Source: Lepiota brunneoincarnata (lineage: Eukaryota; Basidiomycota; Agaricomycetes; Agaricales; Agaricaceae). From it: 64,000 nt of DNA. Location: assembly GCA_023014365.1 (NCBI GenBank), contig JAEBUN010000001.1, positions 186,001 through 250,000 of the forward strand. Direction: 5' to 3'. Below are positions 33,394 to 62,666 of the stretch, one piece after another (the stretch's first letter is position 1; each line of letters starts with the position of its first letter). The notes beneath the pieces were generated by a model, which saw only the letters and a program-made list of their open reading frames with translations, did no database searches and had not been told where the DNA came from. Both the position numbers and the translations under genes were made by a program.

Positions 33394-35578
33394 TTAAGAC
33401 TCGACAGCCGCCTGTTCAATGAGTTTGGCAGCGTTCACATCTCGCACTGTCACCACACAACGGAACGGGTCAGGTTTCCTGAAAACGACAAATGTAAGCA
33501 CGGACCACTAAGCCCATAATCATCTGAGAGATTGCAATAAAAACGCACCCAACAAAGTTAGGATAATTGGGAACAGGAGTGATCTCTTTCCCAAACTCAT
33601 CCTTCGCTTTCCGCACGTCAAAAGTCGCAACCAAGCACGCGACAGCCAACCAAATCTGCTGGTCTGCGAAGTACTGACCGACGCACACCCGGCGACCAAA
33701 GCCGAAGATGAAATTCCTCGGATCTATTTTTTTTGCCTTTTCCTCGTCCAAGCCAAGGAATCGTTCTGGGTTGAAGTTGAAAGGCTCTGGATAGTTTTCC
33801 TCGTTATGTGTCATTGACCAGATGTTTGGATGGATAATTGTTCCGGCGGGAATGTGGTAACCGTTATATTCATCATCAACGAGGATTTGATGGGAGGGCC
33901 CTAGGGTGTATGTTGTTGGACGGGTTTTCGCAGGAAGATGATGGATTGCGTTACTTACCCAACGGAGCAGCCGGATTCCAACGCAGAAGTTCTTTCACCA
34001 AGGCATCAATATAAGGCAGAGATTCCCTATCAGAAAAGGTGGGAAGACGGTCCGTCCCAACAACACGGTCAATCTCTTCCCTGGCCTTCTTTTGGACGTC
34101 AGGGTGAAGAGTGGACGCCAAGAAGAATGAACTGAGGATTGAATACGTCTAATGGATAGTCAATTTACTGAAAATGCGAGATAACAACAGTAGCGACGAA
34201 CCGAGTCCGTTCCAGCTTTGAAAATACAATATCAGGTTTCAGAAAAGGTAATACACGAGACATGTATACACACCTGCATATAGCACAGCAGAAGTGTCCT
34301 TGACGATTTGTTCCTTTTCCTTGGACACTTGAGTCCCTCCAAATTCTTCAAGTAGGCGTGTGACGTAAGAGTTGACCGCCTTTCCAGCGAGCTATCAAAG
34401 AAATAAGAAAATAGGAAGTGGTAGAAAGGGACATTGGGACTTACCCAGCGTTCTTTAGTGTCCCTGAATGGTCCTTCCAGAATTTGCTCGCCATAAGGTC
34501 GCGATGCCTCCGCAAACTTCTTGAATTGAGCGCCCGGGACCCAAGACGGAACTAAACAGGTATAGGTGAAGGGTGAAAGTCAGAGAGATATGACTTGGCT
34601 AATAAGCAATGCTGACCATATTTCACTGTTTGTGTGGCGTTGGTCAGAGAGAGTACGGGTACCATTATGGAGTAGGTTCATACATATCGGAATCTTATCC
34701 ACCATGAACCCCATTCCTTGAGCTGTAGTCAGGGCCTCGACAGCTTTCTTGACCACTGGCATGTACTCGTCTTTCTCCTTCAGGTCATAGCCGTAGGTGC
34801 TGATGTGCAGGCACGGATACGGATCAGCACAGGCACAAAATTCGACGTGTTAACTCACAATTTCATGATTGCTGATCCTGTCAGACTGTCAGGCTGGTCA
34901 GCATCTTAGCATAAATGAGGGAAAATGACAAGATGTACTGCTCGATTTGATAAAGCCAATCATCGGGGTTAACGACGAGCTTCTTCAGGAACTTGTGTGT
35001 AGCGTCTTGCTGCAGTTGACGCCATTCACGAACAGCACGATTGTTGAGGTTCTGGTGCATGGCACGTCGGTGCTCCTTCCACCTTGCCCCGTAGTTGAAG
35101 AATGTCATATTGAATCCCCATCCTATTCTTTAGAAAGATGATCCGAGGCTCCCCGTCAACAATATCTCAATTGAGGTAGAGGTGTATACCTACAAATCCA
35201 GCATGACACTGCTTGGCCTATCAGAATAGAGGGTTGAACGTTTGTCAAGGAGTTCATATGCGATCTTGTAATCGTTGATGATTATGTTTTTCGTCCGAAA
35301 CACCGTAAAGTAGATTAAACCACCTAGTGAGCAGGAAGTAGGGTTGAATTTTGATCTCTCCTGGCCGGACAATTTTACTTGCCATATTTTTTGCCCCAGT
35401 TGTGGAATCCAACCCACGGCTTTTCGTGCGGTACGTCCTTGGCATTGCCGTATATGAACCGAGGCTTGGGTCCAGGAGGACGAGGCAAGCTCTTGTAAGG
35501 TCTTCGAAGGACCCGAGAGAGAACCAGATAAATAGCGGCCACGGCGGCGAAAACTGTGATGGGTAACGAGTAAGCCAT
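33394..35578 (-). CDS. Cytochrome P450 (1), left end of the cluster
   Basis: ER-anchored heme monooxygenase. The N-terminal membrane anchor is [20 protein letters not shown], followed by the proline hinge PRPPGPKP. The helix C region shows [13 protein letters not shown]. The oxygen-binding I-helix is AGTDSTYS, split by an intron. The K-helix ExxR is KELLRW, and the heme motif [10 protein letters not shown] carries the Cys ligand. The protein ends after a short last exon at [14 protein letters not shown]. The first intron (35334-35382) has a GC-AG border (GCAAGT). I found no frame break. It resembles CYP64-type enzymes of basidiomycetes, but no subfamily is claimed. It may act on the terpene product of the cyclase 4 kb to the right. 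Confidence 0.88.
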
Positions 35579-36573
35579 CGGTGAACTCTAGCAGGTGGGC
35601 TGTTGCGGCAAAAACTGGGAGAGGATTACGATCAAGTGTTATATCAAGAAAACCCATCGAGAGGTACTCTAGGACAGAGTTCCATTCCACTTACCGAGCC
35701 GTCATGGTATATTGTTATCATGGCAATTGACTCCATCCACCTGGGAAGAAGCAGACCATCGTTGTAGCTCCGAGATCGGGGCATCACAAGCCTGAGAAGA
35801 ATTCCGGAGCCATCTTGCACATCTGGATTTAGGGTGGGACCCGGTACAATCCGACTCGTGATGTGGGGCTCTATTACCTTGCGCTTCAAATTGCAGAGTT
35901 GAGGCCATTCGCTCGACAGTCTTGATTCATTTCCGATCAGGTCGCAAGAGATAGGTAGAGATTAGCTGTTGTCTCGTTTCATGACGTGCGAAGTGGATCG
36001 CTGCTTCGCACGGCGGCTATGTCAAAAAAAATATCACAACACCTCGGGCTACGTAGCCACAGTTGCGCTGATACTGATCTAACCGGTAGGGATGCGCATG
36101 TGGACTGATAAGAATATCAGCTCTCATCTGCACCAAGTTTTTCGCTGCATCGTTGTTCCACAGATCCATCTCTCAGATACCCGAAATGTGGCATGTAGCC
36201 TTCAAAGAATACCATCTTTCTCATCGTTGCTCGGCGCTCAGCCCCGGTGAAGAGAAAAATCCAAGCGACGGCTCGGAGTAGATGACATACCCGAGCCTTG
36301 CGGGCAAAGATCTTGTGCCAACCAACTTCCTGCAATTTTTGTTTTGTGAATGGGAATGATACAGAACCCAACTTCGGCGGGCAGACACACCCTCATTGTG
36401 CCACGGCCCTACGGGCCGACGCCCGCCGGACAAACAAATCGGCATCCACACCGGACATAATTGAAGTGAGAGTGGCACTCTCAGTAAATCCATCAATAGT
36501 CTAGGCTAAGTAGTACTATATCAAAGCCAGATCGAGTCACTCAGAGAAGAGAACACCCCCCGTAAATCAGCAG
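35579..36573. other. Divergent intergenic region with shared element
   Basis: Promoters of P450 (1) (minus) and the first SDR (plus). It contains a 48-bp element also found upstream of the third SDR (listed separately). No gene recognised. Confidence 0.5.
35978..36027 (+). repeat. Element shared upstream of two SDR paralogues, copy 1
   Basis: About 48 bp, from TTTCATGACGTGCGAAG through TGGATCGCTGCTTCGCA to GTCAA, lies about 550 bp before the first SDR start codon. It contains the palindromic arms GCGAAG and CTTCGC around TGGATCGCTG. The second copy lies at about the same distance from the paralogous SDR. Confidence 0.6.
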
Positions 36574-37723
36574 ATGGCACAAAAATACGTTTGGTTTGGT
36601 AGGGCCATCTGCATGATTACTATCATTTTCTGCGCCTCATCCAATTACTACTAGTCACCGGCACGTCGTCTGGACTCGGGAATACCCTGCTCCACGAGCT
36701 CCTCCGTTCAGGTCATTCGGTTATCGCTACCGCCCGCAAACCCGAAGTCCTCCAAGCAGCATTAAACAAAAAATACGACGCGGAGACTTTGAAGCGCGTT
36801 TTGGTCATCAAACTTGACGTTACCCAGCCAGAGGAAGTCAAGGCCGCCTTTGCCGCAGGAATCCAGGGATTCGGGCGGATCGATGTTGTTGTTAATAACG
36901 CTGGATATGTCCGTAATGCCAACTCCGTGAAAAATGGCTCTCTTTTTCATTGATTTTCTCTTAATCAGGCTGTGGTGGCAGAAATAGAGGCATGTCCGAT
37001 GGAGGAAGCACGCGCTCAATATGAAGTCATGTTTTGGGGACCAGTCCACATTTCGAAAGAGGTAAACCTCCGGCGTTATCGAGAGTGTAACCGAAGAGCT
37101 TGACTAATGATATTGAGTAAAGGCGGTCAGAATTTTCCGGGAGGTCAATCCTCCAGGCAAAGGCGGTCAGATTTTCAACGTCAGCTCTGCTGGGGGATAT
37201 TCTTCCCAACCCACACTGTCCTACTACAATTCTGCCAAATTTGGTACGCCTGAATAACGCTCTCCGCAGCCCTTTTCATTCCAAACTGACCATTATTTTA
37301 GCTCTCGAAGGATTCACCGAATCCCTCCGGAAGGAAATGTCACCAGAGTGGAACATTCAAGCGACCATCATTGAGCCAGGAGGGTTCAACACTGAGTGGC
37401 GAGGTGGTAACATGACGATTTTGCCCCCACATCCAGCATACAACACAGAATCCTCTCCAGCGAGGTACTTCCGTTCCTCGCTACGCGAGCTCCCCTTCAT
37501 TGGCGACCCAGAGAGGGGGGCTAAAGCGTTTGTGAACTTGGGTGGAAGGCGAGACCTGCCTCTGAGGATTCAGTTTGGGAGTGATTCGTTGGCTATTGTT
37601 CGTCATACAGCCATGAAGACAATTGCTGATAGCGAGAAGTGGGAGGATGTCTCGCACTCTACGAATGTGGATGGCGTTGATCCAAAGGAATACACCAAGA
37701 ATCTCCTCGCGGCTTTGGGATAG
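36574..37723 (+). CDS. Short-chain dehydrogenase/reductase (1)
   Basis: NAD(P)-dependent oxidoreductase of the classical SDR type, 304 residues from five exons (36574-36598, 36655-36908, 36969-37061, 37123-37243, 37302-37723). The cofactor motif is TGTSSGLG and the helix C motif NNAGY. The active site has Ser (FNVSSAGGYSS) and YYNSAK for Tyr-x-x-x-Lys. The C-terminal half has EPGGFNTEWRG. The arrangement resembles 1-acyl-DHAP reductase or retinol-dehydrogenase-like SDRs of fungi. It is a close paralogue of the gene at 56319-57465. In the cluster context, oxidation of a terpene alcohol or reduction of a ketone is the likely job. No frame break. Confidence 0.88.
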
Positions 37724-37972
37724 ATATAATTACTTGTACTCTGCTGCGTATTCTATCATCACAATGGCATGTTAGTATTGAAATTTGAGCCTCAACGGTA
37801 TAAGCGTCTATCAACATCTTAACAGATCGCAAACACTCTCATTTCTCTCAATAAGTGAGAATGAATTTCTTATACAGGCGGCGGCTCACGCAAGGGATAG
37901 CGGACATTATACTATAGATGGTTGAGGAAGTTGATATCACATGAAGACTCTGAGAACATTGTCATCTAGAAG

Positions 37973-39121
37973 CTACTGGTTAGAGGTTTCCCTCAATTTC
38001 TTTACAATCATGTCTCCATACGCCACACCATCCATTCCATCCTTGTCGCTCATCCTGGAGATCTCTGTGTACTTCTCAGCATCCTTCCCGACAATTTCCG
38101 CCTTGGTCTTGACGATAGCCAAGGAATCACTCCCCAAAGGCATGCGCATCGGAAGTTTGGGCTCATGAGAGAGTTTCACGATCGCCTTGGCTCCCTTTGT
38201 TGGGTCACCCAACATGGTGATGGACGACCGTAGGTTACGGAAGTTGGCAGGATTCCCGGCGTAGGCAGGATGTTGATCGAAGCTGACAAACGCGTTTCGC
38301 CACTCGGTCTCGAAACCTCCTGGCTCCAGAATACAAGCTCTGATGTTCCACTCGGGCAACATTTCTTTGCTAAACGATTCGGTGAAGCCTTCGAGCGCTA
38401 ATAAATAAGACGGAACAAGTCAGAAGCTGCATTGTTTACCCTGGGCTTCCTGATTAGGACTTACCGAATTTGCTAGAGGCATAGAAGGCAAGGCCCGGAT
38501 TGGCATTGTAGCCTCCAGCGGAGCTGACGTTGAAGATGATTGCTCCTTGACCCTTTTTGTTGACTTCGCGGACGGTTTTGGCAGTCTATGATCCCCATGA
38601 GGAATGGACTGCTAATCAATGAAAGATCGGAATACTTACCAGTTTCGAGATATAGACTGGTGCCCAGAATTGGACATCGAATTCTTTTCTTGCCGCCTCC
38701 TCTGGAATTCCCTCGACCTCACCGAAAACGGCCTATTGAAGTTTTATGAGAGATTAGCAGGAACGATTTGGAAGCGGAACCAAGGGCTCACATAACCAGC
38801 ATTATTCACGACAACGTCAACTCGCCCAAAATGATCGATCATAGCCTTGAACGCGCGATCTACCTGCTCGTTGATAGAGACATCGAGCTCGACAACGAGC
38901 AAGCGTGAAGACGGATAGCGAGCCTTTAGATCATCCAAGGCCGAGAGACGCCTAGCCGTGGCGACGACGCACTCTCCGGCTTCGAGGACGGCTTCTACTA
39001 AGGCTTTTCCCAATCCTCCGGATGAGCCAGTAACTGATTACTCTTCCGGTGAGCAGTTGATTCAAGGATAAGAGAGAGAGGATGTCTACGCACTGAACCA
39101 AACGCGTTGATCAGCAACCAT
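37973..39121 (-). CDS. Short-chain dehydrogenase/reductase (2)
   Basis: Classical SDR of the same subgroup as SDR (1) but clearly more diverged. A tiny first exon (MVADQRVWF) splices into TGSSGGLGKALVEA. Further motifs are VNNAGY, FNVSSAGGYNA and the catalytic FYASSK. The protein ends TSNQ, with EPGGFETEWRN conserved in the C-terminal half. Exons resolve without a break. It is tail-to-tail with SDR (1), about 250 bp apart, and its 5' side faces the 3' end of the terpene cyclase gene. A role in tailoring the cyclase product is inferred from position only. Confidence 0.87.
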
Positions 39122-39752
39122 TGTGCAATATTCTGAATAATTGTGCCGATGGAGGAAGGTGGCTGAGTCTTTTAAGCCTCGAGAGATCCTGGGATGCCGA
39201 GGGTCATCGGCACCCGGCTCTCGACGCGTGTAAGCTGGACTTTGTGGTAGGAAAAAAGTTGGAGCGACTGCTGTTTGTTAACCACGCCATCCCGCCCAAT
39301 AAGGTATCCATTCCCTTAAACAGCATAGTAGATTCTAAATATGCAATGGGGTTCGGCCATGAAAAAGAACGCCGAAGAAAAGTATGTGGGTTGCCCCTGT
39401 TCGTCACTTCTAAATCGGGAATTGGCTTCGCCGGACACAGTGGGTCACCTCGGGCCACATGCGGATTGTTTCTGGGAAACTTCTGTGGCTTCGCAACTAG
39501 CGTTGGATCCGAGAACAGAGGAAAGTGTGGATCCATCACCCTGGTAGAACAACTCTCCTCCTTGGCGGGGAAAACGACGAGCTCTCCTTATGGACTAGCG
39601 ATTAATTCTCTTGCAAGGCCAGGAGTACCCTCGATTGGACAATTTCATGACATTTGCCACACACATACAGTTCTATGTACAAGGTTTTAAAAAATTCATT
39701 ACAAATAGAGGAAAGGGTACATTCAGATTGAATGACTGCTGTCTATAGCATA
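39122..39752. other. Intergenic region
   Basis: Promoter of SDR (2) and 3' flank of the terpene cyclase gene. No gene recognised. Confidence 0.4.
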
Positions 39753-41561
39753 CTAATAACTCCAATAACCCTTGAATCGGTTGACAACAGAGGACAAGAG
39801 AGACGCAGAATTAACCAGAGAGGTAGACTGCGTCTTGCGCAGTACCCGGACCTGGTGGATGGCACGCATAGCCCACGCAGTGGTTACGCCATCGTTTTTA
39901 ATGAGGATACCGGATGACCCGTATTTATAAAACCAACCATTGCCCCACCCGCCATCTGAGCGCTGCATGGATAGGAGTGTTCCGACGTCACGATTGTCCA
40001 CTAGACCGACGACTGTCCCTGCAATAATCCGTGCAGCTAGGGAAAGTGCATCCGCCTCGGCTCCGAATCGCTCCATTATTCTTTCCTTGAATACGGGCAC
40101 GAAGCTCTGTCGGACTTCGGGAGAAGCCTGGAGAAGGCGAGCCAGGAAGAACAAAAATAGGTCAGCCCCGGCGTAGTAGTATGTTCCAGAAATATAAGCG
40201 CGGTTAATTAAAACCTGCTTAATCCAATTAAGCGTTTCAGAGAGCTCGCGACCTCTCCCGTTTTCGTAGAAGAGAGTTAGGACGTTGACGCATACAACGG
40301 GATCGATGCGAGGGCGCGAGTGGTCAAAGTACACTTGGATTATTCCATCAGAGTTCCTGTATTTGAGCATTTCGTCCATCACTTTGTGTTTCGTGGTGGC
40401 ATCGACGTGGTCAGAGACGGTGAGGCCAATCGAGGTTGTATCGAGGTCGTTCCTGGAAAAGAATACGAGATTACATTAGTATAACCATGAGAAAACTTGC
40501 AATTTTTTACTCACGGAAAAAGTTCGGTGGTGAGCACGCCACCATCCCTGAAGAAATTGAATTGTCCTGGGTGCTTCACGTAGTCCACCAGAGACCTTGA
40601 GAAAGTGTGGTGTGAATGGTTGTAATTTGATACCTGGCCGAAAACAAGACTTACTTATCGCCTGTAGCCTCGAGGATTAGCAGTTGGGCAAAGTTCTGCA
40701 TAACATAGAGTGTTTAGATCAAACGATATTGGGAGATACATGCGCGTAGGCTATACCTCAGACAGCTCGATATTATTTGAGGTCACAGATCTAAGCTTCT
40801 TCTTATTCGAGGCCAAAAACTCCTTCCCTCGCTCTATCGGATCATAACAAAGGTTTTTAAGTTCTTGGATTACTTTCGCTTGGTCATCGAAAAGTATCCC
40901 ATGCATCCCAAACGACCGAGCGGTCAAGACGTTCTCGAGCTTGTCATCGACAAATATTGTGGAGGAGGGGTCAATCCCAGTCTCCTTAATGACGTGCTTG
41001 AAGAAGCCGATATTTGGCTTGCGCTCACGGGCAGCCGCACTGAGAACAAGCAACTATTAGCCCAGGTGATAACAGCGAGTCATCTCGGCTGACAACGTAC
41101 GATGTGAACGTGCGATTGAAAAGGGCCCACTCCTCAGGAGTGGCTTTGGTGAATAAAACTTCCCAGTCCGGTGCTGAGATATTTGACATGGCGTATGTTG
41201 AAAGCCCTGCCTCCCTGAGTTCTCGAATGATTTCGAGCATTACGGGGTCGCTCTGCAGGGAGTCACGGGCAGCTTGGAAGGCATCCTTGACGTCGACAGG
41301 AGAGACATCGAACTCCCGCGCGACAAGAGCATAAGCTTCTTCCTCGCCGAGGTTGCCCTTTTCAAATTCGAACCAGTGATGAGAGCGAAGGATATTTCGA
41401 ATAACCTTGGCTGGAAGTGGAGACTTTGGAGTAGAGGGGGACCAGGTAAAGAGAACGTCGCCAAGATCGAAGATGACGGTGGTATAACGCTTCGACCTTG
41501 TCGAGGTAGGAGATGAGTGGTGAGTGTCCATAATGGCCATCGTCGTAAAGGGATTTGACAT
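39753..41561 (-). CDS. HAD-terpene cyclase fusion, DxDTT class II type (drimane/albicanol synthase-like)
   Basis: Bifunctional enzyme expected to cyclise farnesyl diphosphate by protonation and to remove phosphate. Five exons (41101-41561, 40757-41039, 40655-40695, 40515-40595, 39753-40452) sum to 1566 nt, 521 residues, no frame break. Residues 1 to about 240 form a HAD domain: FDLGDVLFTW (motif I), AMSNISAPDW (motif II), RERKPNIGFF (motif III Lys) and IFVDDKLEN (motif IV). Residues 270-521 form an alpha-barrel terpene-cyclase domain with NDLDTTS, the DxDTT proton-donor motif, and SDGGWGNGWFYKYG near the end. This architecture is known from Aspergillus AstC and basidiomycete albicanol synthases. 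The Gly after Leu in motif I replaces the second general acid/base region of many HAD phosphatases, so the phosphatase step may differ. It is the core of the cluster. Confidence 0.87.
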
Positions 41562-44010: not shown

Positions 44011-45929
44011 CTACGTCCTCCTAGTAAAGGCAATATGCAAATCCCTTGGTAAGCTGAGAGCAAATGGAGAAAATCCATTTTTGGGATAGGCCTCATGGGG
44101 CGAATCCTTCGGCAAGGTCCATTCCCAGTTTTGAAGGAGCATTGCGGCCAGGGTCCTGAGTTCGTACATCGCAAAGTTGCGTGCAGGACATTGACGGGGA
44201 CCAAGAGCGAAAGGGACTAAAAATAAATAAAAAAAGAATTATCAGAGAAAAGTCCTGGGTTGATTTGAATAGACGATAATTACAGCCACAAACTGGCATC
44301 CACGCGAGTCTCATCCTTCTCAGACTTTCCCATAAACCGTTCTGGGAGGAAAGTGCCTGCATTTGGCCAGTAGGCTTCGTTATGATGGATAGACGTAATG
44401 TTCAAGATAACGGAAGTCTTGGGAGGGAGGATAATACGTTTTCCCGTTCGAGGCCTTCAGATCTGCGGGTTGTTCGGATGCACGAGGGACCATGTAAGTC
44501 TGTAAAATGGAAGGTATAACATTATTCGGAAAGATAACAACGGAGAACTGAACTTACGATGGGCGTGTTAATCCGCAATGACTCTCGAATACAGGCTTGG
44601 ACGAAATTCATTTGACGCAAGTTGGTTAGGCTTGGTTCGTCTTTTCCTAGTGCCGCTGAAACTTCTTCACGAGCCCGCCTCTGGAACTCTGGGTTCTTCG
44701 CCGAGATAGTAAACAAAGCTGGACATCGCGCCAGCAGTAGTATCATGACCTGCGATGAAGAACACAACCCTAGAACAGCCTGGTTAGCGGGGAATTACTT
44801 GGATAGGTGGATAGGCCAGATAGCCTACATGTTATCTCTATACTCTTCAGTCGGTCATTCCTGGTTCTTCCAGCATATAGGTGAGCATGTCGTTCCCCTT
44901 GTTTTCTTTCTTATGTGTCAAAATACCCTGGAACTTTGAAACAAGATTAGTCGATGTTGGCAATGACCGTGCGGCGGGGGAGCCAGTTTTCGAGCTTTGG
45001 GAAAACAATGTATCTGGCGGAAAGGCTCAGCATAGATGGCAAAAGGTTCAATAAATTACTCACAGAGGATCCGAGATCCCGTCCATTACTTCGTTGTATT
45101 GCCGAACAAAAGGGCTGTGGTCATCTTCTATGGCGCGGAAGTTGTGTCCGAGAGCAGTCGTGCCTAGCAATGTTGTTAGTCCCTCACGAAATCAGACTGA
45201 GGTTTACAAGGTACGTACCAACGGCGTCAAGAGTGAAGCGCTATGGGCACCGCTCCTGTCAGTTATACAGGCTGGAGAACAAGAATCAAGGCAAACGCTC
45301 ACCATTGTGAAATCGTCCCATTTGATTAATCCGCCATTTCCCATCTTGTCGAACAACTTCTTGGCCAAAGATACAAATTCATGAATAGGGAAGATTCCTA
45401 GAGAGCGCGGATTTGACAACACGGGAGTGCCTCGTCCAGGCCTCTCCGTTGGAGAGAATGACATTGGTCTTTCCAACGAACCTCCAGAGTAGCATAGGCA
45501 TCTGCAATTACCTGTCATTTTCAACTTTTGGAAAAATATACAGTGATACGAACCGGGTGGTTCCTCCTTGGGCCAGAGGGCAATGTTGTCTGACAAGTTT
45601 TTGGCGATCTAGGAAGCCAGTGAGCATAAGTGTAATATATAAAGTTCGAGGGGCCCAATGGTACCTGATGGTCGAGCACGTGCACGATCCAACGTCCAAG
45701 AGCATAAACCAGCACAACGCCTTCACCCCTCTCATTTGCAAAGGGCAGAAGGAGGCGCTTGATGCGAACGTCTTCAACTTCTCCAGTGGCATAACTCCAC
45801 AACAGGGGGATGATGGGAGCTCTAGGAAGATGGCGAAGTTCAGCAGGGGGGGTGAATATCCATTTGACGAGGGCGAAAAAGTAAGACGATTGGGAGGAGG
45901 AATTGCCAGCCAGCAGGTAAAGTCAACAT
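44011..45929 (-). CDS. Cytochrome P450 (2), frame interrupted
   Basis: P450 with an N-terminal anchor (LPAGWQFLLPIVLLF) and a hinge RHLPRAPIIPLLWSY. Further landmarks are GRWIVHVLDHQ, TNVILSNGEAWTRHSRVVK, the I-helix AGHDTTAGAMSSF, the K-helix ExxR CIRESLRI and the heme motif FALGPRQCPARNFA. The stop is at 44011. All these blocks are well conserved, yet the frame as read is broken by single extra bases near 45876-45880 (A5 on plus), 44949, 44849, 44701 and 44439-44442 (T4 on plus). A true pseudogene would normally also show missense change and deletions in the motifs, which I do not see. So either insertion errors or very recent inactivation. Its position next to the cyclase suggests a tailoring oxidase. 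Confidence 0.75.
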
Positions 45930-46327: not shown

Positions 46328-48879
46328 ATGGACTTCTCCAAACTCCCGTACCAAAGCCTCCCCTTCATCCACGAGCCCCTTAGCCTTGCACCAGTGTACA
46401 AGGCCGCATCTGTTGGGCTACTTGTCGTCTTGGCCGCCAAAGTTATCAAGTATCTGACCAGGCGCTCCCCGTATGATCACATTCATGGACCAGAACCATC
46501 CTCCAAGTTGGGTGAGTAGATGCCAGACCCAATGGTATGTCTGAAGTCTGAAACCCCGTAGGCTATCTTCTGGATATGCATGACCCGGATAACCTTGACT
46601 TCCACTTTAAAATGACTGAACGCTATGGTCACGTGGCCAGGTTAAAGGCTGGAATTATCGGCGTTCGTTCATAGTTCTACGTACGGTTCAAATTTCGGAT
46701 ACTAACTCCCAAGCTTGTAGTCGGATGGGCTCTACATCTCGGATCCCTTGGCTCTTCACTCAATTCTCGTCCGGGACCAGAATGTCTTCCGCGAGTCTAC
46801 AGAATTTTCGGGGTGAATGAACCTTTTTTTTCTCCATATTTTCAAGTAAACTCACAAAGACTCAAACTCAAGTCTCTTTGGAGTCATTCATCACGGTGAT
46901 CAACTAGCATCTGTCTGGGGTATTTAAATCATTTCCAATCTCCACGTCCAATCCTAACAGCTATGTACGTTTTCCAGGAGATGAACACAAGAAGCAAAGA
47001 AAGCTCATGAACCCAGTCTTTACGGCGGCTCACGTTTCCAAGCTCTCTCCATTATTCTACAGGATCGCAACAGAGGTACTTCCTCTTATCATTGATTTTG
47101 GAACTGGGTACTAATCAACTGTGTAGCTTCGTGACAGGCTGGCAGCGGAGATCAAGTCGAGCGCTGACAATACTGTTGATATCTTGGACCGCCTGACCAG
47201 AACGGCTCTCGAACTCATCTCGCAAGGAGGCATCGGCCACACCTTCAACTCGTTTGAGAAGAACAGCAAGGAGTTCCACGAGTTCCACGAGGCTCTCAAA
47301 GACGTTCTGTGAGGCACCCCCGCCCCGCAGATACGAGACTTATAACTGATGATATTGCATTGATTCATATAGTCCAACTGCCAGCAAATTATTTTTCATC
47401 CTCCCATTCCTTGAATCGTGGCGCAAAAAGGAGCCTGTATGGTTCCGTAGAGCAGTCGCCAATCTTGCGTATGTGATTCCTTGGCCCGCGATGCGCAGAT
47501 TCAAGGAAGGCCGTCGACACGATGCATCCCGTCTGTGCCAAGGTGTTTTACGAAAAGAAGGCCGCGTTCGATGAAGGAGGAATTGCAGCCCTCGCCAATA
47601 CGGCTTCTGGCGGTCGTGACCTGACCACTCTCCTCAGTGGGTTTCAAAAACTTTGAAAATAAACTCCCAATTTTGGATTTATCTTTCCTTCAGTGCAGGC
47701 CAACGCAGAAGCGGATGAGGAGGACCGTATGCCTGACGAAACCGTTATTGCCAATATGAGGTTCGATTCCGAGTTGGGGCTCCTTAGGCCAAGGCTAACG
47801 ATTCTATTTCTTCTTCAGTTCCATCGTCTTGGGCGGTCAAGAAACTACCTCTGGAGCTATGTCTCGGCTTTTGGATCTGATGACCTTGGACCCAAACCTA
47901 CAGACCTGGGTACGAGAAGAGATTAACGAAGCATTGGCCGTAAGCGAACTTTGGTTTTTTTTTTGTGATTGGATATGACTCGCTAACATTTCACTCTCAA
48001 TTATCAAGAAAAAGAACGGCGAACCTCTGGATTTCTATGAACTTAATGCCCTTCCTCGTCTCGATGCGACATGTCGAGAGGCGTTGCGCCTCTTCGCGCC
48101 CGTCACCTTCGTATGGAGACAGTGGGTTACTCCTTTCCCTTCCATTTTATTAAATTTCACCAAAATTCTTCCGCAGGACAATGAGAGACGTCAGTCGTTC
48201 CTCTACAGTTCCCTATCACTGACGTGAAGACCGGCAAGGAGTTGCGCGAGCTTGTCATTTATGAGGGAACTCCGGTATATGTTGGCATGGGAGCAACGAA
48301 CCGATCCACTGCCCTCTGGGGACCTGATGCGGCCGAGTTCAGACCTGAGAGGTGGATAGGACAAAACGCCCGCGATAGCGCGGTAGAGAGTATCAAGACG
48401 CCAGGCATATTCTCTAATATGTAAGAGATTATTTCCCAAGTCAAGGGTGACATACCTAACGTTGTCTGTTTTAGCATGACCTTTTTGGGAGGAGGTCGCG
48501 GATGCCCGTAAGTCTGCGTTTAAATAACGAATAACCTGTGGACTTTTTCCTTACCCAAAACTATTTCAAAAGGGGCATGAAGTTTGCCTTACTGGAAATC
48601 AGTACGTCCCGAACTCAGTTGGTGTTTTATTCTATATAGCTCAATTTTTCCCCTGCAGAGACTGTCATGTCAGTGCTCCTACCTGCCTTCCACTTTGAAA
48701 GGACAAAGGATATAGTCGATTGGCGCCTTGGGTATTACGCTCTCTCCATATGTTAGAGGCAAGGAGGCAGAGGGACCTCAGGTTCCAATGAAGGTGTCAT
48801 TGATGTAAGTTCCCACTACGCCGATAGCAATTCTATGGAGCCGACGGTAATCATACCTTCCAGTGAGGCCAAGAATTAG
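46328..48879 (+). CDS. Cytochrome P450 (3), frame interrupted
   Basis: P450 with an N-terminal hydrophobic segment (SVGLLVVLAAKVIKYL) and a hinge HIHGPEPSSKLG. It continues with LLDMHDPDNLDFHFKMTERYG, then DEHKKQRKLMNPVFTAAHV (helix C), I-helix GGQETTSGAMSRLL, ExxR as CREALRL, PERF-like FRPERWIG and the heme motif FLGGGRGCPGMKF. The last residues after the final intron are EAKN, stop at 48877-48879. About 13 introns. The frame is broken by extra bases near 47508-47510 (GG), 48193 (A) and 48730-48732 (GGG), with conserved sequence on both sides of each. It is divergent from P450 (2). Confidence 0.78.
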
Positions 48880-53492: not shown

Positions 53493-55554
53493 ATGCTCCG
53501 ACTTCCTTACCTCACATTGGCCCTTGCTCTAGCCATTTCCCCTATTGAAGCCGCAGTCACCTGCAAATGCCAACCCGGCAACTCCTGCTTTCCGTCCCGA
53601 GCAGTGATCTCTGCTTTCGAAAAGACGCTTTCCCATCCCTTAATCCACCCCCGTCCAATCGCGGCCGTGTGCTTCCCTAATGACCCCAGCTTCAATCAAG
53701 CTGCCTGTGATGTGGTCAGGAACAACTGGCACAACGGCACGTTCCGAACCACCCTTCCAAACGCACTGCAGTTCATTAATTGGGAGTCTATCATCAACTC
53801 GACTGCCATCGAACAATGTGATCCTTTCGGAGACGTTAACAACCCAGCCTGATGTCTGCTTCCAAGGAAGGGTGCCTTGGGGAGTTGTCAACGTCACCTC
53901 GGCCTCCGACATCCAAAAGGACTGTGAGGTTCGCCTCGGAGCACAATCTAAAACTAGTTGTGAAGAACACTGGGTAAGGTTTTTTTCTTGTCATTCCTTC
54001 ACGCTACCGTATACTAAGATTGACTATCAAAGGCACGAGAGCTTGGGTCGCAGTTTCGGGCAATCATCCATTATGCTATGGACCCATAACCTACAGGACA
54101 TCAAGTTTTCCGATAACTTCGTCCCAAAGGGTGCTCCCCGTGGCACTCAAGGCGTCTCCAGTACGTGAATCTTTGCAACCCGTTCCTACTATAGGCTGAT
54201 CTCATGCTACATAGCCTGTCACTATCGGAGCCGGTGTCCAATGGGGACCTCTGTACGAGGCTGTTGCACAACATGGTAAGGTTGTGGTCGGAGGTATTGG
54301 TGCAGGAGGGCTCAGTCGGAGCTGGTGGTGGCTGGCCTATGGGAGGTGGACACAGTATTCTGTCCCCTTTCTACGGTCTAGGTAGGCCTGTTACAATTTA
54401 TGAGAGAAGACAAAAGTCTGAAGAGATCAGCTAGGTGTCGATAATGTTGTCGAGGAAACGGTGGTTCTTCCAAACGGAGAGCTTGTTACTGCTAACCTTC
54501 ACACGAACCCCGATCTCTTTTGGGCATTGCGCGGAGGAGGTGGTCCCAGCTTTGGAATTCCTCACTTCCGTTACATATCGAACCCACCCAGCAGAGCCAG
54601 TCACAGCGGCATTCCTCGTCAGCAACACAACGAGCGACTGAGGCACGTCCTCGCCCTCTTTAACGAGTGGGTCAAAGTCCATCCCGCTCTGGTAGACGCT
54701 GGATGGGCCGGTTTCTGGCCCTACGATGGCGAACAGTTCTTCCTGACTCTAATGGCCCTCGGTAACCCCCCAACCAACCCCAACGCAAACGCGAACACTC
54801 CAGGGCTTCTACTGACACCATCTCCCAGATTCCCGGCGTCGCCATTGATCTGGAAGTGACGAAACCTTACACGGGCTTCCAGCAGTGGTACGACGATAAC
54901 TTTATCCACAGTCAAAACGGTATCGGGTTCAACTACACTGTTGGAGATTTCAGTGGAGTGCCAGTCTCCGTGGCCTCCGTCTTGATACCCCGCGAGAATT
55001 TCGAGAACAACACCGAGGAATTAGCCAGAGCACTTACAGCCCTTGATGATGCCCGTCCCTTGTCCGTAAAGATTCGTTTTCACTCTTAGGCTTCCTTGAA
55101 ACTGATGTTTATCGCTTATATATAGCCTTGTCGGGGGTGGAGTTGTGGCTAATGTTGATCGTGACGCAATGGCCGTCAACCCGGCCTTCCGAGGAATGCT
55201 CAGCGACCTCACCATCGCTCTGAGCTGGAATGTCACTAGCGCAACTCCCCAGGATGTTTTGGAGGTCGAACAAGAGGTCACACGGTTGGCAGACGGCGTT
55301 CGGGCTGTCACTACGCAAGTAGGCGCCTACGTCAATGAGGTTGGTTAATATTTTGCATGTTCAGGAACTAGTAATCTCACCTGCATCTCCAGCCCGAAAT
55401 CCTTATTCCCGACTTCCAGACGACATATTGGGGAGATCACTACCTCCGTCTTCGTGCATTTAAGCAAACGCTTGATCCGAAAGACTTGTTGATTGTTCGC
55501 CAAGGCGTTAACTCCGAGGGCTGGGACGACGAGATCCTCTGCAAGACTACCTGA
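53493..55554 (+). CDS. Secreted FAD-linked oxidase, berberine bridge enzyme type, frame interrupted
   Basis: VAO-family flavoprotein (FAD_binding_4 plus BBE domain) that oxidises alcohols, sugars or specialised metabolites with O2. It has a signal peptide ([19 protein letters not shown]). The FAD domain shows [45 protein letters not shown] and [19 protein letters not shown]. Then come [20 protein letters not shown], the substrate domain ([16 protein letters not shown]), FQQWYDDNF, and the C-terminal BBE element [20 protein letters not shown] with [13 protein letters not shown]. As read, extra bases break the frame near 53845, 53920, 54215, 54309, 54560, 54794 and 54813, and one base seems missing near 54630. 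Whether this is error or decay is open. It resembles fungal cluster oxidases. Confidence 0.75.
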
Positions 55555-56318: not shown

Positions 56319-57465
56319 CTATCCCAAAGCCGCAAGGAGATTCTTGGTGTATTCCTTCGGGTCAATGCCATCCACATTCGTAGAGTGCGAGACATCCTCC
56401 CACTTCTCGCTATCGGAAATTGCCCTCATGGCTGTATGACGAACGAGAGCCAACGAATCACTCCCAAACTGAATCCTCAGAGGCAGGTCTCGCCTTCCTG
56501 CCAAGCCGACAAACGCTTTAGCCCCCCTCTCTGGGTTGCCAATGAAGGGAAGCTCGCGTAGCGAGGAACGGTAATACTTCGTCGGAGAGGAATCCGTGTC
56601 GTATGCTGGGTGTGGGGGCAAAATTGACATGTTACCACCTCGCCACTCAGTGTTGAATCCTCCTGGTTCAATAATAGTTGCTTGAATGTTCCACTCTGGT
56701 AACATTTCTTTCCGGAGAGATTCCGTGAATCCTTCGAGAGCTAAAATAATGGTCAGTTTAGAATGAAAAGGCTGCGGAGAGAGTTTTTCAGGCATACCGA
56801 ATTTAGCAGAATTATAGTAGGACAGCGTGGGTTGGGAGGTATATCCGCCGACAGAGCTGACGTTGAAAATCTGACCGCCTTTACCTGGAGGGTTGACCTC
56901 CCGGAAAATTCTGACCGCCTTGTAGAAAAAGATTATTGTCAGTCAAGATCTTCGCCTGCAACCTCGATAATGCGAGATTACCTCTTTCGAAATATAAACG
57001 GGTCCCCAAAACATGACCTCGAACTGGGTGCGTGCTTCTTCCATTGGGCATGCTTCTATCTCTGCTACCACGGCCTGGTTAAGAGAAAATCAGGAAAGAG
57101 AAGGATTCACGGAATGGGCCCAACGCACATATCCAGCATTGTTAACAACGATATCGATATGTCCAAACTTTTTGATTCCTGCGGCAAAGGCGGCCTTGAC
57201 TTCCTCTGGTTGGGTAACGTCAAGCTTGACGACCAAAGCGCGTTTCAAAGTCTCCGCATCGTATTTTTGGTCTAATGCTGCTTGGAGGACTTCGGGCTTA
57301 CGGGCAGTGGCGATAATCGAATGACCTGAACTGAGAAGCTCGTGCAGCAAGTTATTCCCAAGTCCAGACGAAGTGCCGGTGACTGTTAATAGGACGACTC
57401 AATGTTAGTGATGATACTAGGAATCATATAGATAACTTACCAAACCAAACGTATTTCTGTGACAT
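56319..57465 (-). CDS. Short-chain dehydrogenase/reductase (3), paralogue of SDR (1)
   Basis: Classical SDR with the same five-exon structure and length as SDR (1), and near-identical protein in many blocks, for example ALEGFTESLRKEM, IEPGGFNTEWRGGNM and DPKEYTKNLLAALG at the C-terminus. The start reads MSQKYVWF against MAQKYVWF. Motifs TGTSSGLG, NNAGY and YYNSAK are intact, and no frame break was found although it sits among interrupted genes. It lies in inverted orientation about 20 kb from SDR (1), with a shared upstream element. A segmental duplication inside the cluster is the simplest explanation; the two may act on successive intermediates or be redundant. Confidence 0.88.
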
Positions 57466-58687
57466 CTGCTGCTTCACAATGGTGTTATTAGCAGGCGATT
57501 TTACAGGAAGCGAGACCCTCAGTTCACACATCTTATATCCGATAGATGACCTCTGAATAACCCCTTTCTAGCAAAGTGGAAATCTCGGCTGAAGTTCGTG
57601 CGCTCAGGTCCAATTCGCCAAGTAAATGGCAGGAAGTCGCTTGCCACCAGATTCTCGTCCGCAAACTTCGGGTTGGTTACCCACTCGTCGCTTGAGTTCC
57701 CTCCTGACCGAGGCCGAGAATTATTCCGTTCTCCGAATGTACCATGCCAGAGTTTTTGTGACTGAGATGGATCTACGGAACAACAGTGAACCGAAAAGGG
57801 TGCAGATAGTGGAAATGTGAACAATGATGAGGAGCAAGGGACTGTCATAAGCCCCTGAGACGCCGTGCCGGGATAATCCGTGTTCGGAGCGGCTTCTGCG
57901 AGTGCATTGCGTGGCAGCGCGGCTGCTGGGCTTCTTAGCTAATTAAAAATGTATATCCCCGCTGGTAAAATCAGTGGGAATGAATCAGAGGCTATTCCCA
58001 GCCGCTGTGAATTTTTAGTACAAGTTGACAGCATAGCCATGCGAAGCAGCGATCCACCTTACATGTCATGAAATGAAGCATTAGCCTTGAAGGGGCAAGG
58101 CCGTATTTTACGTCGCAGTATCAATAGTCTTTGGAAATGGATCATTGCGCTGTATGAACTCCTAAATCGTAACCCCACCGGTGTGTAAATTCTTGATGGA
58201 TCGCTTAACGAAGATGAAACTGCATACGGGCCCCACACCAGAGAGATCGGACCCTGACCATCGTGGACGCGGTGCGTTAGCAATCTGCCTGCCCCACCTG
58301 AATTCCGAATAGTGAGATGTCTGTTACGAAAAAGCCTCGTAGGTCCCACGTTCAAGATATATTTATGGAAGCAGAAGCACACCAGGCGCCCTAGGGGGTG
58401 TGATATTGCCTGTGATAGCCGTATTAGTAGCAATGAACCACGTTGTTCTGGCATCAATCACATTAGCAAGTAATATCGCGATGGAAACCCTAGTGCCCCA
58501 AGCTGCCCCTCGCAAGTATGACAAACCATGAGGATGTCAAGTCCGACCGCTCTGGCACGGTGGGACGGCCTCACAGCCATGGCAGCTCCCTTTTCCGACC
58601 GCCGACCTTGCGCCCATCTCTATTGAAATATCGGCGTTCGTCGACTCGGACCTATCACATTCTTCATTTTTTTTCCCACCGCACTGG
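57466..58687. other. Divergent intergenic region
   Basis: Promoters of SDR (3) (minus) and the MFS gene (plus). It contains copy 2 of the shared SDR upstream element. Short open frames here have no family resemblance. Confidence 0.45.
58030..58071 (-). repeat. Element shared upstream of two SDR paralogues, copy 2
   Basis: Read on the minus strand it begins TTTCATGACATGTAAG, continues TGGATCGCTGCTTCGCA and ends GTCAA, matching 35978-36027. It lies about 565 bp before the SDR (3) start codon. The left palindromic arm is not preserved in this copy (TGTAAG instead of GCGAAG). Confidence 0.6.
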
Positions 58688-61077
58688 ATGCGAAATTCTA
58701 CCTCCAACCCTCCTTCTCGAATTATGCTTGAACAACCCTCAGGGGAGTCGTTTTGTAGAGAGGAAACGACAAACATATCGGAACCTGGAAATTCAGGCCA
58801 AGTAACCGCCAACTGGATTCAATTACCAGGACCACAGCCCACCCGAGACCCGTTCCTCGTTCAGTTCGCAGAGAATGATCCTGGAAATCCACTCGTAAGT
58901 GGCTATTATAATCATGGCTGAAGAGCCTGGGCATACATACGTCTGTGTTTCTAGAACTGGTCGAGACTAAAAAGATGGTATCTGACAATAGCTAGCGGCA
59001 TCCTAGTCTTGAACGCGTGAGTTTTCTATCCAGACTTTGAATGCTTGGGCTACGAGTGACAATTCCTGTAGAACATTTGCTAGCTCTGCTCGTGAGTGAA
59101 TCCTATTTTCTTCTGTGGCATTTTAGGTGATTAAAATGTCGCTCGATGGTAGCCTCTGGGATCATCGGCGAGTTAACGGAGCGCTTTCATATGTCCGAGA
59201 AAGTCGCTACCCTCACGCTATCTCTTTTCGTGACGGGCTACTGTGTAGGGTACGTACCCCCTACCACATTCAAATTGGACCATCTTAATCACCATTTTCG
59301 AAGGCCTATATTCTGGGGACCCCTATCAGAACGTTATGGGCGAAGACCTATTTTTCTGGTTGCCTTTTTCCTGTATGTGGTGAGTTGAAATCATTCAATA
59401 TATTCTTCTTGGGAGTGAATGAACGCAAAATCGCAGTGCACTCAGCTTGGTTCAGCAGTTGGCCAATAATACGGCATCTGTCCTCGTGTTTCGATTTCTC
59501 GGCGGGACATTTTCCTGCATGTCCTCTTTCCAACTCTGGGTATGTTCAGCGCAAATAACTCCCTGAACTATCGGACTCGAGCTTACTGGAGTCGCATTAC
59601 TTTGCAGAGCTTTAATTTCAGACATCTGGGATGCAGAAACAAGGGGCAAAGCTTTGGCCATATTCGCCGTCACTCCATTTGCAGGTCCATCTCTCGGGCC
59701 CGCCATTGCCGGGCTGCTTGGAGAGAAGGCGGGCTGGAGATGGGTGTTTTGGCTTCTGACTATCTTCGTGGGTAGTCGACGTTGTCCAAACATTCGTGAT
59801 TACTGACTCTTTTCAAAGTCTGGCGTTTGTTGGGTGATGATCCTGTTGACCATGCCGGAGACTTATGCGTAAGTGAATAGGTTATGTACCAACTGTGGGC
59901 AATTAGTTTAGCCTTCCTTAGGCCCATCCTCTTGACCCAAAGAGCACGGAAGATTCGATCAGACACTGGCGATACAAGATACTACGCGGCTCTGGAGAAG
60001 GACCGCCCACGTCTTGTTCAAATCTTTGACAAAGTGCTTGCTAGGCCTTTCAAGGTGTTATTCCGGGAAGCCCATGCTAATCGCAATTACCTGTGTACCT
60101 CAGCGTACGTTTATCCAATTCTCTCGCTGGGTAGGCACTGACCTAAGAGAAAATGTGCAGTTCGCTTACGGTTGCCTCTACCTTATGTTTGAAGCGTACC
60201 CCTTCGTATTTACAGTTCCAGCATCACCTGTCACCAACACTTTCTGGCTTGACGTTTTTGCCAGTGGCTGTTGGAGGCACCATTGCGGTTATCCTTGTAA
60301 TACCATTGTTTATCAAAAATGGGTGAACTCAGCTGACATCTTTTTTTCCCTTAGTATGTCACCATTTTTAATCCGCGGTATGAAAGGGAGGCGAGGAAAC
60401 ATGCTCCAAACCCAGTCCCTCCGGAGTTCCGCTTGGAAATGACACTGATTGCTGGCCCTGTGTTTGCAATTTCTTTCTTCTGGTTCGGGTACGCATTTTT
60501 GTCCTGTATTGCTACTCTATTGTTAGAGCTCCTCACTCGACAGGTGGACGTCCTTCCCTTCTATCTCGCTTTGGGTCCCTCTCATGTCTGGGCTCACCGT
60601 CGGCTTCTCCATAAGTTGGATATTTGTACGCAGATCTTGCACTTCACACAGGGGGTAGTGTTACTTATAATCCACATTGCAGCTGAGCTTGTTCAATTAC
60701 ATCATCGATGCATATCTATCCGTTGCAGCTTCGGCTATTGCTGCCAGCATTGTTTGCCGAAGTCTCTCTGGAGCGGCTTTCCCTGTTCGTTTAATCCCTT
60801 ATTCCTCTGCACCCGTTGCTAATGGTCCCATCGGTTAGCTATTCGCATCAAACATGTATGAGAAGCTAGGCCCACGATGGGCTTCTTCACTACTGGGCTG
60901 CTTCGCAATTATTCTAATCCCGATCCCTTTCGTTCTCATGAAGTAAGTGCTCTCTGCAAAGTTTTCGACCCCGAGTTGATCTTGAATGTAACCAGATACG
61001 GACCGACACTGCGGAAAAAATCCAAATACGCGCCTGACACCGTGCCCATGGTGGTGATCAAGGTGGATAAAGTCTAG
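58688..61077 (+). CDS. MFS transporter (DHA1-like), frame interrupted
   Basis: Twelve-helix major facilitator, drug/polyamine H+ antiporter type, probably at the plasma membrane and suited to exporting the cluster product. The N-terminal cytosolic tail ends in WSRLKRWYLT before helix 1. The signature loop 2-3 is WGPLSERYGRRPIF. Helix 4 has LVFRFLGG and helix 5 PFAGPSLGPAIAGLLGEK, with AGWRWVFWLL behind it, matching motif C-type sequences. The C-terminal half has MFEAYPFVF, IAASIVCRSLSGAAFP and KLGPRWASSLLG; stop at 61075-61077. The frame is broken by extra bases near 59461, 59519, 60070, 60094 and 60218, each with intact homology on both sides. About ten introns. Substrate not deducible. Confidence 0.78.
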
Positions 61078-61513
61078 TAGGGATTGAGCAACAGATGTAT
61101 GGTTCCGCTTATCAGTTTGTTACATTAGTCTTGTCCTAATAATAAACATATTCTTCAATCTTTCGGGGGTAACGGCTAACAAATGACAGATGGCACTTGA
61201 CAGTGTCAGGGTCGACCCCGAGCGAGGGGTGAGCATACAGTGCATCGTGGATCTGGGATCTTGAGGAATCTCTCGCCTTTTATCGCGGAACATCGGAATC
61301 GGGATTGAATTAGAAAATATCCACCACCAAATTTACATTTTGTGCAAATCGGTTGCAGAATCTTTGTGCAGTATTCCGTTACTTCCATGAGGTGTATATC
61401 ACAGGAGGAAACTCCGACCCCACAGCTCAACGTCGCTATGGAGGAGCTTTAAAGGTAGCAAAGTTGGTCTTCTTTGATGTAACATAGTCTTACTCCTCTC
61501 AAATCTTTCGATC
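61078..61513. other. Intergenic region
   Basis: 3' flank of the MFS gene and promoter of SDR (4). No gene recognised. Confidence 0.4.
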
Positions 61514-62666
61514 ATGTCCTCTCAACAGGTTGCTATAGTCACTGGAGCAGCGGACGGTATTGGCAAAGCCATTGCCTTGCGTCTTGCTTCCGACGGCTAC
61601 GACGTCGTGGTAGCAGACCTTCCCAGCCAGCGCTCCCTCGTGGACGCTGTGGTTGCGCAAGTGAAGGCGACTACCGGGCCGCAAGGCGATTAGCTATCAA
61701 GTTGACGTCACTAAAGAAGATCAAGTAAAAACCATGGTGCAGTCCACTGTCGATAACCTTGGAGGACTTGATGTGGTAAGTATTCCGGCGTGAATCTACG
61801 TTGCTCTAAGAGTCTTCAACCACTTATTCGCCTTGTCCATGACAGATGGTTGCAAATGCGGGACTCTCAAGAATGACTCCCCTTCTTGACTGTCTGTACA
61901 ACTTTTACTTGAACCTATCAGTGGAAAAACTCACGCATTCGGATCTCCAGTGTCGCTCGACGAATGGCAAAGAGTCTTTGACGTTAATTCAACTGGGGCT
62001 TTTCTTTGCTATCGCGAGGCTGCGAAGAGCATGATAGCGCGCGGAATCAAAGGTCGAATTGTTGGTGCCTGTTCCATCTCTGGGAAAAAGAGTGAGTGAG
62101 TCTCGTCCTAACCTACTACGTTGACCATTTAATGGTCATTTTTTTCTTTTTTCTTTTTTCCGACAGGTGTGGCGCTTCTTGGTGCCTATGGCGCGAGTAA
62201 ATTTGCGCAGCGAGCTTTGACACAGGTTGCTGCATGCGAGTGGGCGCCGCACGGAATCCGAGTTAATGCTTATGCACCAGGACCAACGGATACTCCGATG
62301 TGTACGTTCATCACCCTTGGGTTCATTCTCAATAACTGAGTCAAAATAGTGGAAGGAGCGGACAAGCGAGCACAAGAAATTCTGGGCATGAAACCTGGCG
62401 AATTCCGAGAAGCAGTAAGTCGGTTTTGGGTCATGGAAGAATAACCTCAGTTGCTTACATCGACACAATTACAAAGATGAAGTCAACAACGCAGTTCAAA
62501 CGCTTCGGAAGACCAGAGGAGATAGCGAATGCTGTTTCGTTCCTTGTATCGGAAGAGGCTTCCTTTATCACAGGTAAGTTAAATCTCTGACATGGCAGAA
62601 AGTGACTCACCATAGGATGCTTTAGGCCAAACGATCAATGTAGATGGCGGAATGTGGTTTGACTAA
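61514..62666 (+). CDS. Short-chain dehydrogenase (4), diacetyl/butanediol-dehydrogenase-like
   Basis: Classical SDR of the bacterial-type 3-oxoacyl reductase / acetoin dehydrogenase shape, not closely related to SDRs (1)-(3). The cofactor motif is TGAADGIGKAIALRLA and the helix C motif is VANAGLS. The catalytic region has Ser (GACSISGKK) and YGASKF (Tyr-x-x-x-Lys). The C-terminal block is KRFGRPEEIANAVSFLVSEE with the terminal GQTINVDGGMWFD. Six or seven exons. A +1 shift in GGG at 61676-61678 interrupts the second quarter; the frame then continues with AISYQVDVTKEDQV. It is codirectional with the MFS gene and is the last gene before the F-box gene, so it probably marks the right edge of the cluster. 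Confidence 0.82.

What the first reader, a model, noticed from the sequence alone, without database searches (positions are those of the whole stretch)
33394..62666. Candidate terpenoid biosynthetic gene cluster of about 29 kb
Ten biosynthesis-type genes lie together: P450, SDR, SDR, HAD-cyclase, P450, P450, FAD oxidase, SDR, MFS, SDR. No housekeeping gene interrupts them, whereas the left 31 kb is ordinary genome. No prenyl diphosphate synthase or transcription factor is seen inside, so substrate supply and control would come from elsewhere.
Basis: inference. Interest (0 to 1): 0.85.

Follow-up and report, generated by a model that had tools for sequence, protein, structure and literature searches.

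The report
Mushroom sesquiterpene gene cluster, HAD-type cyclase
A stretch of mushroom DNA carries ten neighbouring genes that look like an assembly line for a small terpene compound, built around a two-in-one enzyme of a recently recognised kind; the kind is known, but what this cluster makes is not.

Summary
The ten genes are present in the order and place given (33394-62666). The anchor is sound: 39753-41531(-) encodes a 511-aa HAD-like terpene cyclase in five open exons, homologous almost end to end to AstC (PDB 22tz, E=6e-106), with the class II DLDTT motif and, unlike AstC, an Asp at the HAD site. It probably cyclises farnesyl diphosphate and then dephosphorylates the product, like AncA/AncC of the antrocin pathway. 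Its clade is Agaricales, 66-80% identical. P450-1 (33.4-35.6 kb) is intact; two relatives lie two locus tags either side of the cyclase gene in Panaeolus cyanescens, so cyclase plus P450-1 is a conserved core. The flavin oxidase shares a contig with P450-1 relatives in Flammula and with a cyclase in Dendrothele and Mycena vulgaris, but not with the cyclase in Panaeolus: ten-gene membership is unproven. Five right-hand genes have broken frames, but so do 5 of 7 HSP70 loci of this assembly, so decay cannot be inferred. Ordinary genes flank both sides. A new member of a known kind; product and co-expression unknown.

The parts
33394..35578 (-). P450-1, 510 aa, 12 exons, open frame; relatives flank the cyclase gene in Panaeolus cyanescens
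   Evidence: model; p450, E=4.4e-72; relatives
36574..37723 (+). SDR-1, 304 aa, 5 exons, open; 85% identical in DNA to SDR-3
37973..39121 (-). SDR-2, 302 aa, open; 50% identical to SDR-1
39753..41531 (-). HAD-like terpene cyclase, 511 aa, 5 exons (four GT-AG introns of 59-62 bases), open; HAD domain Asp22 and Asp175/Asp176, class II motif D281-L-D283-T-T
44011..45929 (-). P450-2; coding pieces in several frames, so broken as assembled; ends approximate
   Evidence: 189 aa in three pieces, p450, E=7.2e-37
46328..48870 (+). P450-3; nearly complete, at least one frame break near the C-terminus and a doubtful junction near 47.5 kb; right end approximate
   Evidence: p450, E=1.4e-49
53493..55554 (+). 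FAD oxidase of the berberine-bridge-like type, N-terminus looks like a signal peptide (by eye); at least three frame breaks
   Evidence: (FAD_binding_4, BBE)
56319..57465 (-). SDR-3, 304 aa, 5 exons, open; inverted near-copy of SDR-1
58724..61077 (+). MFS transporter; frame breaks; start approximate
   Evidence: MFS_1, E=3.9e-29
61514..62666 (+). SDR-4; one clear frame break
   Evidence: adh_short_C2, E=2.8e-62

Best explanation
A sesquiterpenoid biosynthetic gene cluster of an agaric mushroom. The HAD-like terpene cyclase takes farnesyl diphosphate from the general mevalonate pathway, protonates its far double bond with Asp283 of the D281-x-D283-T motif (class II cyclisation) and makes a drimane or monocyclofarnesane diphosphate; its HAD domain (Asp22, Asp175/Asp176) then removes phosphate to give a phosphate-free or monophosphate product. 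P450-1 and probably P450-2/-3 hydroxylate the skeleton, the SDRs change the oxidation level of the new groups, the flavin oxidase may perform a late, possibly extracellular oxidation, and the MFS exports the product. Shown: the genes, their families, the cyclase motifs, and linkage of cyclase and P450-1 in a second genus. Inferred: every reaction, their order, and membership of the right-hand genes.
For: Cyclase homologous to AstC over residues 4-480 at E=6e-106 and to AsDMS at E=3.2e-62; all catalytic positions named for AstC conserved and Asp where AstC has Glu13 (PMC13244436). Panaeolus cyclase CVT24_006369 (79%) and P450-1 relatives CVT24_006367 (74%) and CVT24_006371 (78%) are listed with the same contig of 74,578 bases. 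In this genome matches of at least 60% identity over at least 60 residues to the Panaeolus P450-1 and FAD-oxidase proteins occur only in this locus (candidate lists capped in 68). Ten of ten genes between the ordinary flanks are of biosynthetic or transport type. FAD oxidase shares contig lengths with P450-1 relatives in Flammula (213,982) and with cyclases in Dendrothele bispora (76,605) and Mycena vulgaris (279,077). SDR-1 and SDR-3 at the two ends are an inverted local duplicate pair.
Against: None of the six Panaeolus FAD-oxidase relatives listed is on the cyclase contig. Collybia nuda, Galerina and Gymnopilus dilepis have a close cyclase but no close P450-1 relative among the 120 listed (Collybia nuda 40%, the other two not listed), and no Flammula cyclase is among the 120 listed. 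Two of the five shared contig lengths between cyclase and oxidase are genes about 350 locus tags apart (Paramarasmius) and one is a 6.9 Mb contig (Marasmius). P450-2, P450-3, FAD oxidase, MFS and SDR-4 are not open as assembled. No expression or product data.
Confidence: 0.75

Rival explanations
1. Only the left part (P450-1, SDR-1, SDR-2, HAD-TC; 33.4-41.5 kb) is the sesquiterpene cluster; the right part is another set of oxidoreductases that happens to lie beside it, or a second, partly decayed cluster.
For: Proven linkage in a relative covers only cyclase and P450-1; Panaeolus FAD-oxidase relatives lie elsewhere; frame breaks lie in right-hand genes and none was found in the four left-hand ones; 2.4 and 4.5 kb gaps without recognised genes separate the parts.
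Against: SDR-1 (left) and SDR-3 (right) are near-copies with no third copy found; FAD oxidase and cyclase share contigs in Dendrothele and Mycena vulgaris, oxidase and P450-1 in Flammula; frame breaks are common assembly-wide.
Confidence: 0.17
2. Chance neighbours: detoxification-type P450s, SDRs, an oxidase and a transporter around an unrelated HAD-TC gene.
For: P450 exons are many in this genome (117 matches as a lower bound), and seven other HAD-TC genes on C17 have no P450 match listed between 550 and 600 kb, so a HAD-TC does not need such neighbours.
Against: Cyclase and P450-1 are near neighbours in Panaeolus as well; ten consecutive genes are of biosynthetic or transport type.
Confidence: 0.08

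Closest known systems
Antrocin cluster of Antrodia cinnamomea / Taiwanofungus camphoratus (AncA, AncC)
   Same: HAD-TC of the same family; the Taiwanofungus protein P0014 is 59% identical and has the AncC residues F271, Y459, F461, A468 (PMC12365925 passages).
   Different: The antrocin cluster encodes two HAD-TCs (paper title seen in reference lists); here there is one. P0014 also has the DDRIE motif tabulated for AncA (PMC10608071 passages), so whether it is AncA or AncC is left open. Query differs from AncC at two of the four named pocket positions. The antrocin paper itself was not held.
AstC (astellolide, Aspergillus oryzae) and AacA
   Same: Same two-domain architecture and DxDT motif; AstC homologous over residues 4-480.
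   Different: AstC has Glu13 and no phosphatase activity (PMC13244436); this protein has Asp22 at that place.
Termitomyces DS1-DS3
   Same: Termitomyces HAD-TCs P0008, P0009, P0010 and P0012 (66-67%) are in the same 13-row clade; DS3 made monocyclofarnesyl alcohols (PMC10126200, section 9 part 1). Which listed proteins are DS1-3 was not determined.
   Different: No P450 or oxidoreductase was detected within 30 kb of the genes in Termitomyces T153 (same section); here ten such genes surround the cyclase.
Sanghuangporus ancA locus (ACEPAI_7410)
   Same: HAD-TC 57% identical with the same FYY pattern at three of the four pocket positions.
   Different: Called by DeepBGC as a 112 kb region, not found by antiSMASH 7 (PMC12001456, section 17); gene content not comparable from the text seen.

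Membership tests
HAD-like terpene cyclase (HAD-TC) | N-terminal HAD-like domain | tested here: met
   PF00702 at E=3.2e-07, above its cut-off; residues 69-188
HAD-like terpene cyclase (HAD-TC) | C-terminal class II cyclase beta domain with DxDT motif | tested here: met
   isolated AstC cyclase domain 22ty matched at E=8e-73; D281-L-D283-T-T
HAD-like terpene cyclase (HAD-TC) | Aspartates for metal-dependent phosphatase (present in the dephosphorylating members, not in AstC) | tested here: met
   Asp22, Asp175, Asp176; activity itself not tested
HAD-like terpene cyclase (HAD-TC) | Head-to-tail dimer and cyclisation of FPP | not testable with these tools
   needs protein
Antrocin-type cluster | Two HAD-TC genes in the cluster | tested here: not met
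   one HAD-TC in the window; the only others found are on contig C17, 31-51% identical per piece
Fungal biosynthetic gene cluster | Backbone enzyme with contiguous tailoring enzymes and transporter, bounded by ordinary genes | tested here: met
Fungal biosynthetic gene cluster | Linkage conserved in relatives | tested here: inconclusive
   met for cyclase + P450-1 in Panaeolus; FAD oxidase mixed; other seven genes not tested
Fungal biosynthetic gene cluster | Co-expression and common product | not testable with these tools
   no expression data held

The most novel reading that the evidence does not exclude
An Agaricales HAD-TC pathway in which one cyclase feeds three P450s and a secreted berberine-bridge-like flavoprotein that finishes the exported sesquiterpenoid outside the cell; a recurrent cyclase / P450-1 / flavin-oxidase module (pieces of it seen in Panaeolus, Flammula, Dendrothele, Mycena) that cluster callers can overlook, as antiSMASH 7 did for the Sanghuangporus HAD-TC.
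Probability: 0.2. Interest if true: 0.55.

Novelty: new member of a known kind. Interest (0 to 1): 0.4.

Why it matters
HAD-like terpene cyclases are numerous (394 proteins at E<=0.001, nearly all of the 120 listed from mushrooms), but in the text seen only a handful of fungal ones have a measured product. This locus pairs one with an intact P450 whose linkage is kept in a second genus, which gives a ready substrate-enzyme pair to test and bears on what the Agaricales branch of the family makes (drimane or monocyclofarnesane).

Tried and rejected
Gene finding: a first intron model over-predicted introns and was discarded; stricter models found the intact genes; the cyclase model of the finder (483 aa) was corrected by hand to 511 aa and later threaded through the DNA with four GT-AG introns and no frame break; the other genes were read by eye in three frames. 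A second haplotype copy of the locus, as a check on the frame breaks, was looked for with the cyclase and SDR-3: none. Decay of the five broken genes was considered and set aside after the HSP70 control, though the breaks are denser on the right than in the left-hand genes, which this control does not explain. Prediction of the exact product from pocket residues was tried and given up: two of four named positions agree with AncC and three of four with the Sanghuangporus protein, whose product was not measured in the text seen. Recent duplication from the C17 array was considered: those copies are 31-51% identical per piece, so not recent. The shared-contig count was made after seeing the matches, on species picked out by eye, with an assumed 30 Mb genome; it is a hint, not a test. 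Literature: 7 searches in an open-access library; no listing shows an Agaricales HAD-TC cluster with tailoring genes (one search found no paper). The papers listed were not all opened.
Full report
What was checked. The finding names ten biosynthesis-type genes at 33394-62666. All ten are present in that order. Pfam gives p450 for P450-1, P450-2 and P450-3, short-chain dehydrogenase families for the four SDRs, FAD_binding_4 plus BBE for the oxidase and MFS_1 for the transporter. The cyclase gives only HAD families in the Pfam copy used; its cyclase half is recognised by homology to solved enzymes. Gene models come from a simple gene finder and hand reading. The first and last stop codons fall on 33394 and 62666.

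The flanks. To the left, 6 of 6 gene models tested gave carboxylesterase, alpha/beta hydrolase, MaoC/MFE-2 hydratase, protein kinase, ArfGAP and NACHT. To the right is a gene with a weak F-box match, followed beyond the window by EST1, a helicase and a GDP-mannose dehydratase. So the block is bounded by ordinary genes. Ten leftover ORFs gave no Pfam hit, 0 of 10.

The anchor enzyme. The gene at 39753-41531(-) encodes 511 residues; the protein threads through the DNA in five exons with four GT-AG introns of 59-62 bases and no frame break. It matches AstC (PDB 22tz) over residues 4-480 at E=6e-106 and the bacterial drimenol synthase (9mhs) at E=3.2e-62. Aligned with AstC it has D281, D283 and T284 for the DxDT motif, and N335 and Y372 for the residues that position the acid; the AstC counterparts are essential there (PMC13244436, parts 1-3 of 5 read). 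AstC has no phosphatase activity and has Glu13 in its HAD site; this protein has Asp22 there and Asp175/Asp176 further on, so an active phosphatase is expected. This is inference from residues, not an assay.

Relatives of the cyclase. A protein search gave 394 hits at E<=0.001 among 7995 scored candidates (best 120 listed), the nearest in Panaeolus cyanescens, Collybia nuda, Galerina marginata and Gymnopilus dilepis at 74-79%, and one metagenome protein at 80%. In a tree of 42 rows (40 chosen of the 120 listed, the query and AstC) the query is in a clade of 13 rows with support 100/99; its sister is Panaeolus at 93/78, below the tree's own mark for firm support. The nearest protein of studied function is the Taiwanofungus one, P0014, at 59%. 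Its numbering fits AncC at four of four positions (PMC12365925 passages), but its DDRIE motif is tabulated for AncA (PMC10608071 passages). I leave open which of the two antrocin cyclases it is.

Is the cluster real? P450-1 is complete and open (510 aa, 12 exons). Of the 120 relatives listed, six are 74-81% identical (Panaeolus, Flammula alnicola and a metagenome), a seventh (Flammula) 68%, and the others 33-53%. In Panaeolus two of them, CVT24_006367 and CVT24_006371, are listed with a 74,578-base contig, as is the cyclase CVT24_006369: locus tags two apart on either side. In the window's own genome, matches of at least 60% identity over at least 60 residues to the Panaeolus P450-1 and FAD-oxidase proteins occur only in this locus (in one search only 82 of 481 candidates were scored). 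The FAD oxidase has full-length relatives at 71-81% in Panaeolus, Tricholoma matsutake, Flammula and an unnamed source. In Flammula it shares a contig length (213,982) with two P450-1 relatives; in Dendrothele bispora (76,605) and Mycena vulgaris (279,077) a relative (50% and 41%) shares one with a HAD-TC. That these are the same contigs is read from equal listed lengths. Over 26 species picked by eye from both lists, 5 of 55 pairs shared a length against 1.44 expected with an assumed 30 Mb genome; two of the five are Paramarasmius genes about 350 locus tags apart and one is a 6.9 Mb Marasmius contig. On cyclase contigs under 400 kb it was 2 against 0.215, P about 0.02. That count was thought of after seeing the matches. 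Punctularia has a cyclase and a 47% P450-1 relative both listed with a 2.1 Mb contig, which is weak.

Against the module. None of the six Panaeolus FAD-oxidase relatives listed is on the cyclase contig. Collybia nuda, Galerina and Gymnopilus dilepis have close cyclases but no close P450-1 relative in the list of 120, and no Flammula cyclase is in the list of 120. On the other side, SDR-1 and SDR-3, at the two ends, are 85% identical in DNA and 272 of 304 residues in protein, inverted, with no third copy found; this ties left and right by a local duplication.

The broken frames. P450-2, P450-3, FAD oxidase, MFS and SDR-4 could not be read in one frame, even allowing introns. For the FAD oxidase, aligned to Panaeolus CVT24_003337, the frame changes with no room for an intron, and three such changes appear. 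As a control I took HSP70, an indispensable family: 7 frame changes with fewer than 35 bases between pieces, in 5 of 7 loci; four of the seven have gaps of 4 bases or less or overlap, the other three have 17, 23 and 31. The HAD-TC paralogues on C17 show at least five with gaps under 20 bases. The assembly therefore carries many small indels, and the breaks are no evidence of decay. They are, however, denser in P450-2, the FAD oxidase and the MFS than in the four left-hand genes (none found), so local decay is not excluded.

How it most likely works. FPP is cyclised by the TC domain and dephosphorylated by the HAD domain; P450-1 and perhaps P450-2/-3 oxidise the skeleton; SDRs adjust oxidation levels; the FAD oxidase, whose N-terminus looks like a signal peptide (by eye; nearest solved relative of its Panaeolus counterpart is MtVAO615), may act late or outside the cell; the MFS exports. 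Only gene content, motifs and the P450-1 link are shown. The ring system (drimane or monocyclofarnesane) cannot be told: at the four positions that were named for AncC (F271, Y459, F461, A468) this protein has F267, Y454, Y456 and I463, two of four in agreement, and three of four with the Sanghuangporus protein (F, Y, Y, L).

Comparison with what is known. HAD-TCs of fungi, the antrocin cluster and the Termitomyces enzymes are known. The window's cluster is not an antrocin cluster: it has one HAD-TC, not two. In Termitomyces T153 no P450 or oxidoreductase was detected within 30 kb of the HAD-TCs (PMC10126200, section 9 part 1); in Sanghuangporus antiSMASH 7 did not find one of the two HAD-TC loci (PMC12001456, section 17). 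None of seven literature searches listed an Agaricales HAD-TC cluster of this make-up, in an open-access library only, and not every listed paper was opened. I file it as a new member of a known kind.

Verdict. Real, well bounded, anchored by a convincing enzyme, with a conserved two-gene core; the ten-gene extent, the product and the state of five genes remain open.

Noticed in passing
G000 contig C17:556-592 kb (loci L031-L035): Seven HAD-TC genes in about 36 kb (six on one strand, one apart), 31-51% identical per piece to the window's cyclase, best matched by relatives from the other large branch of the family, with no P450 match listed at 550-600 kb.
   Followed up: partly
window 50163-50455: A dispersed repeat of about 290 bases with 40 other places in the genome (capped list, 71-90% identity), in the gene-free gap of the cluster; it may be a solo LTR, not tested.
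   Followed up: partly
window 35324-35382: The first intron of P450-1 appears to be a GC-AG intron with donor GCAAGT.
   Followed up: no
whole assembly G000: Small indels break reading frames of housekeeping genes (7 intronless frame changes in 5 of 7 HSP70 loci), and several contig pairs carry equal P450 matches (for example C43/C50, C28/C33), as if haplotypes were partly kept apart.
   Followed up: partly
window 36574-37723 and 56319-57465: Inverted near-copies SDR-1 and SDR-3, 85% identical in DNA, about 19 kb apart inside the cluster.
   Followed up: yes
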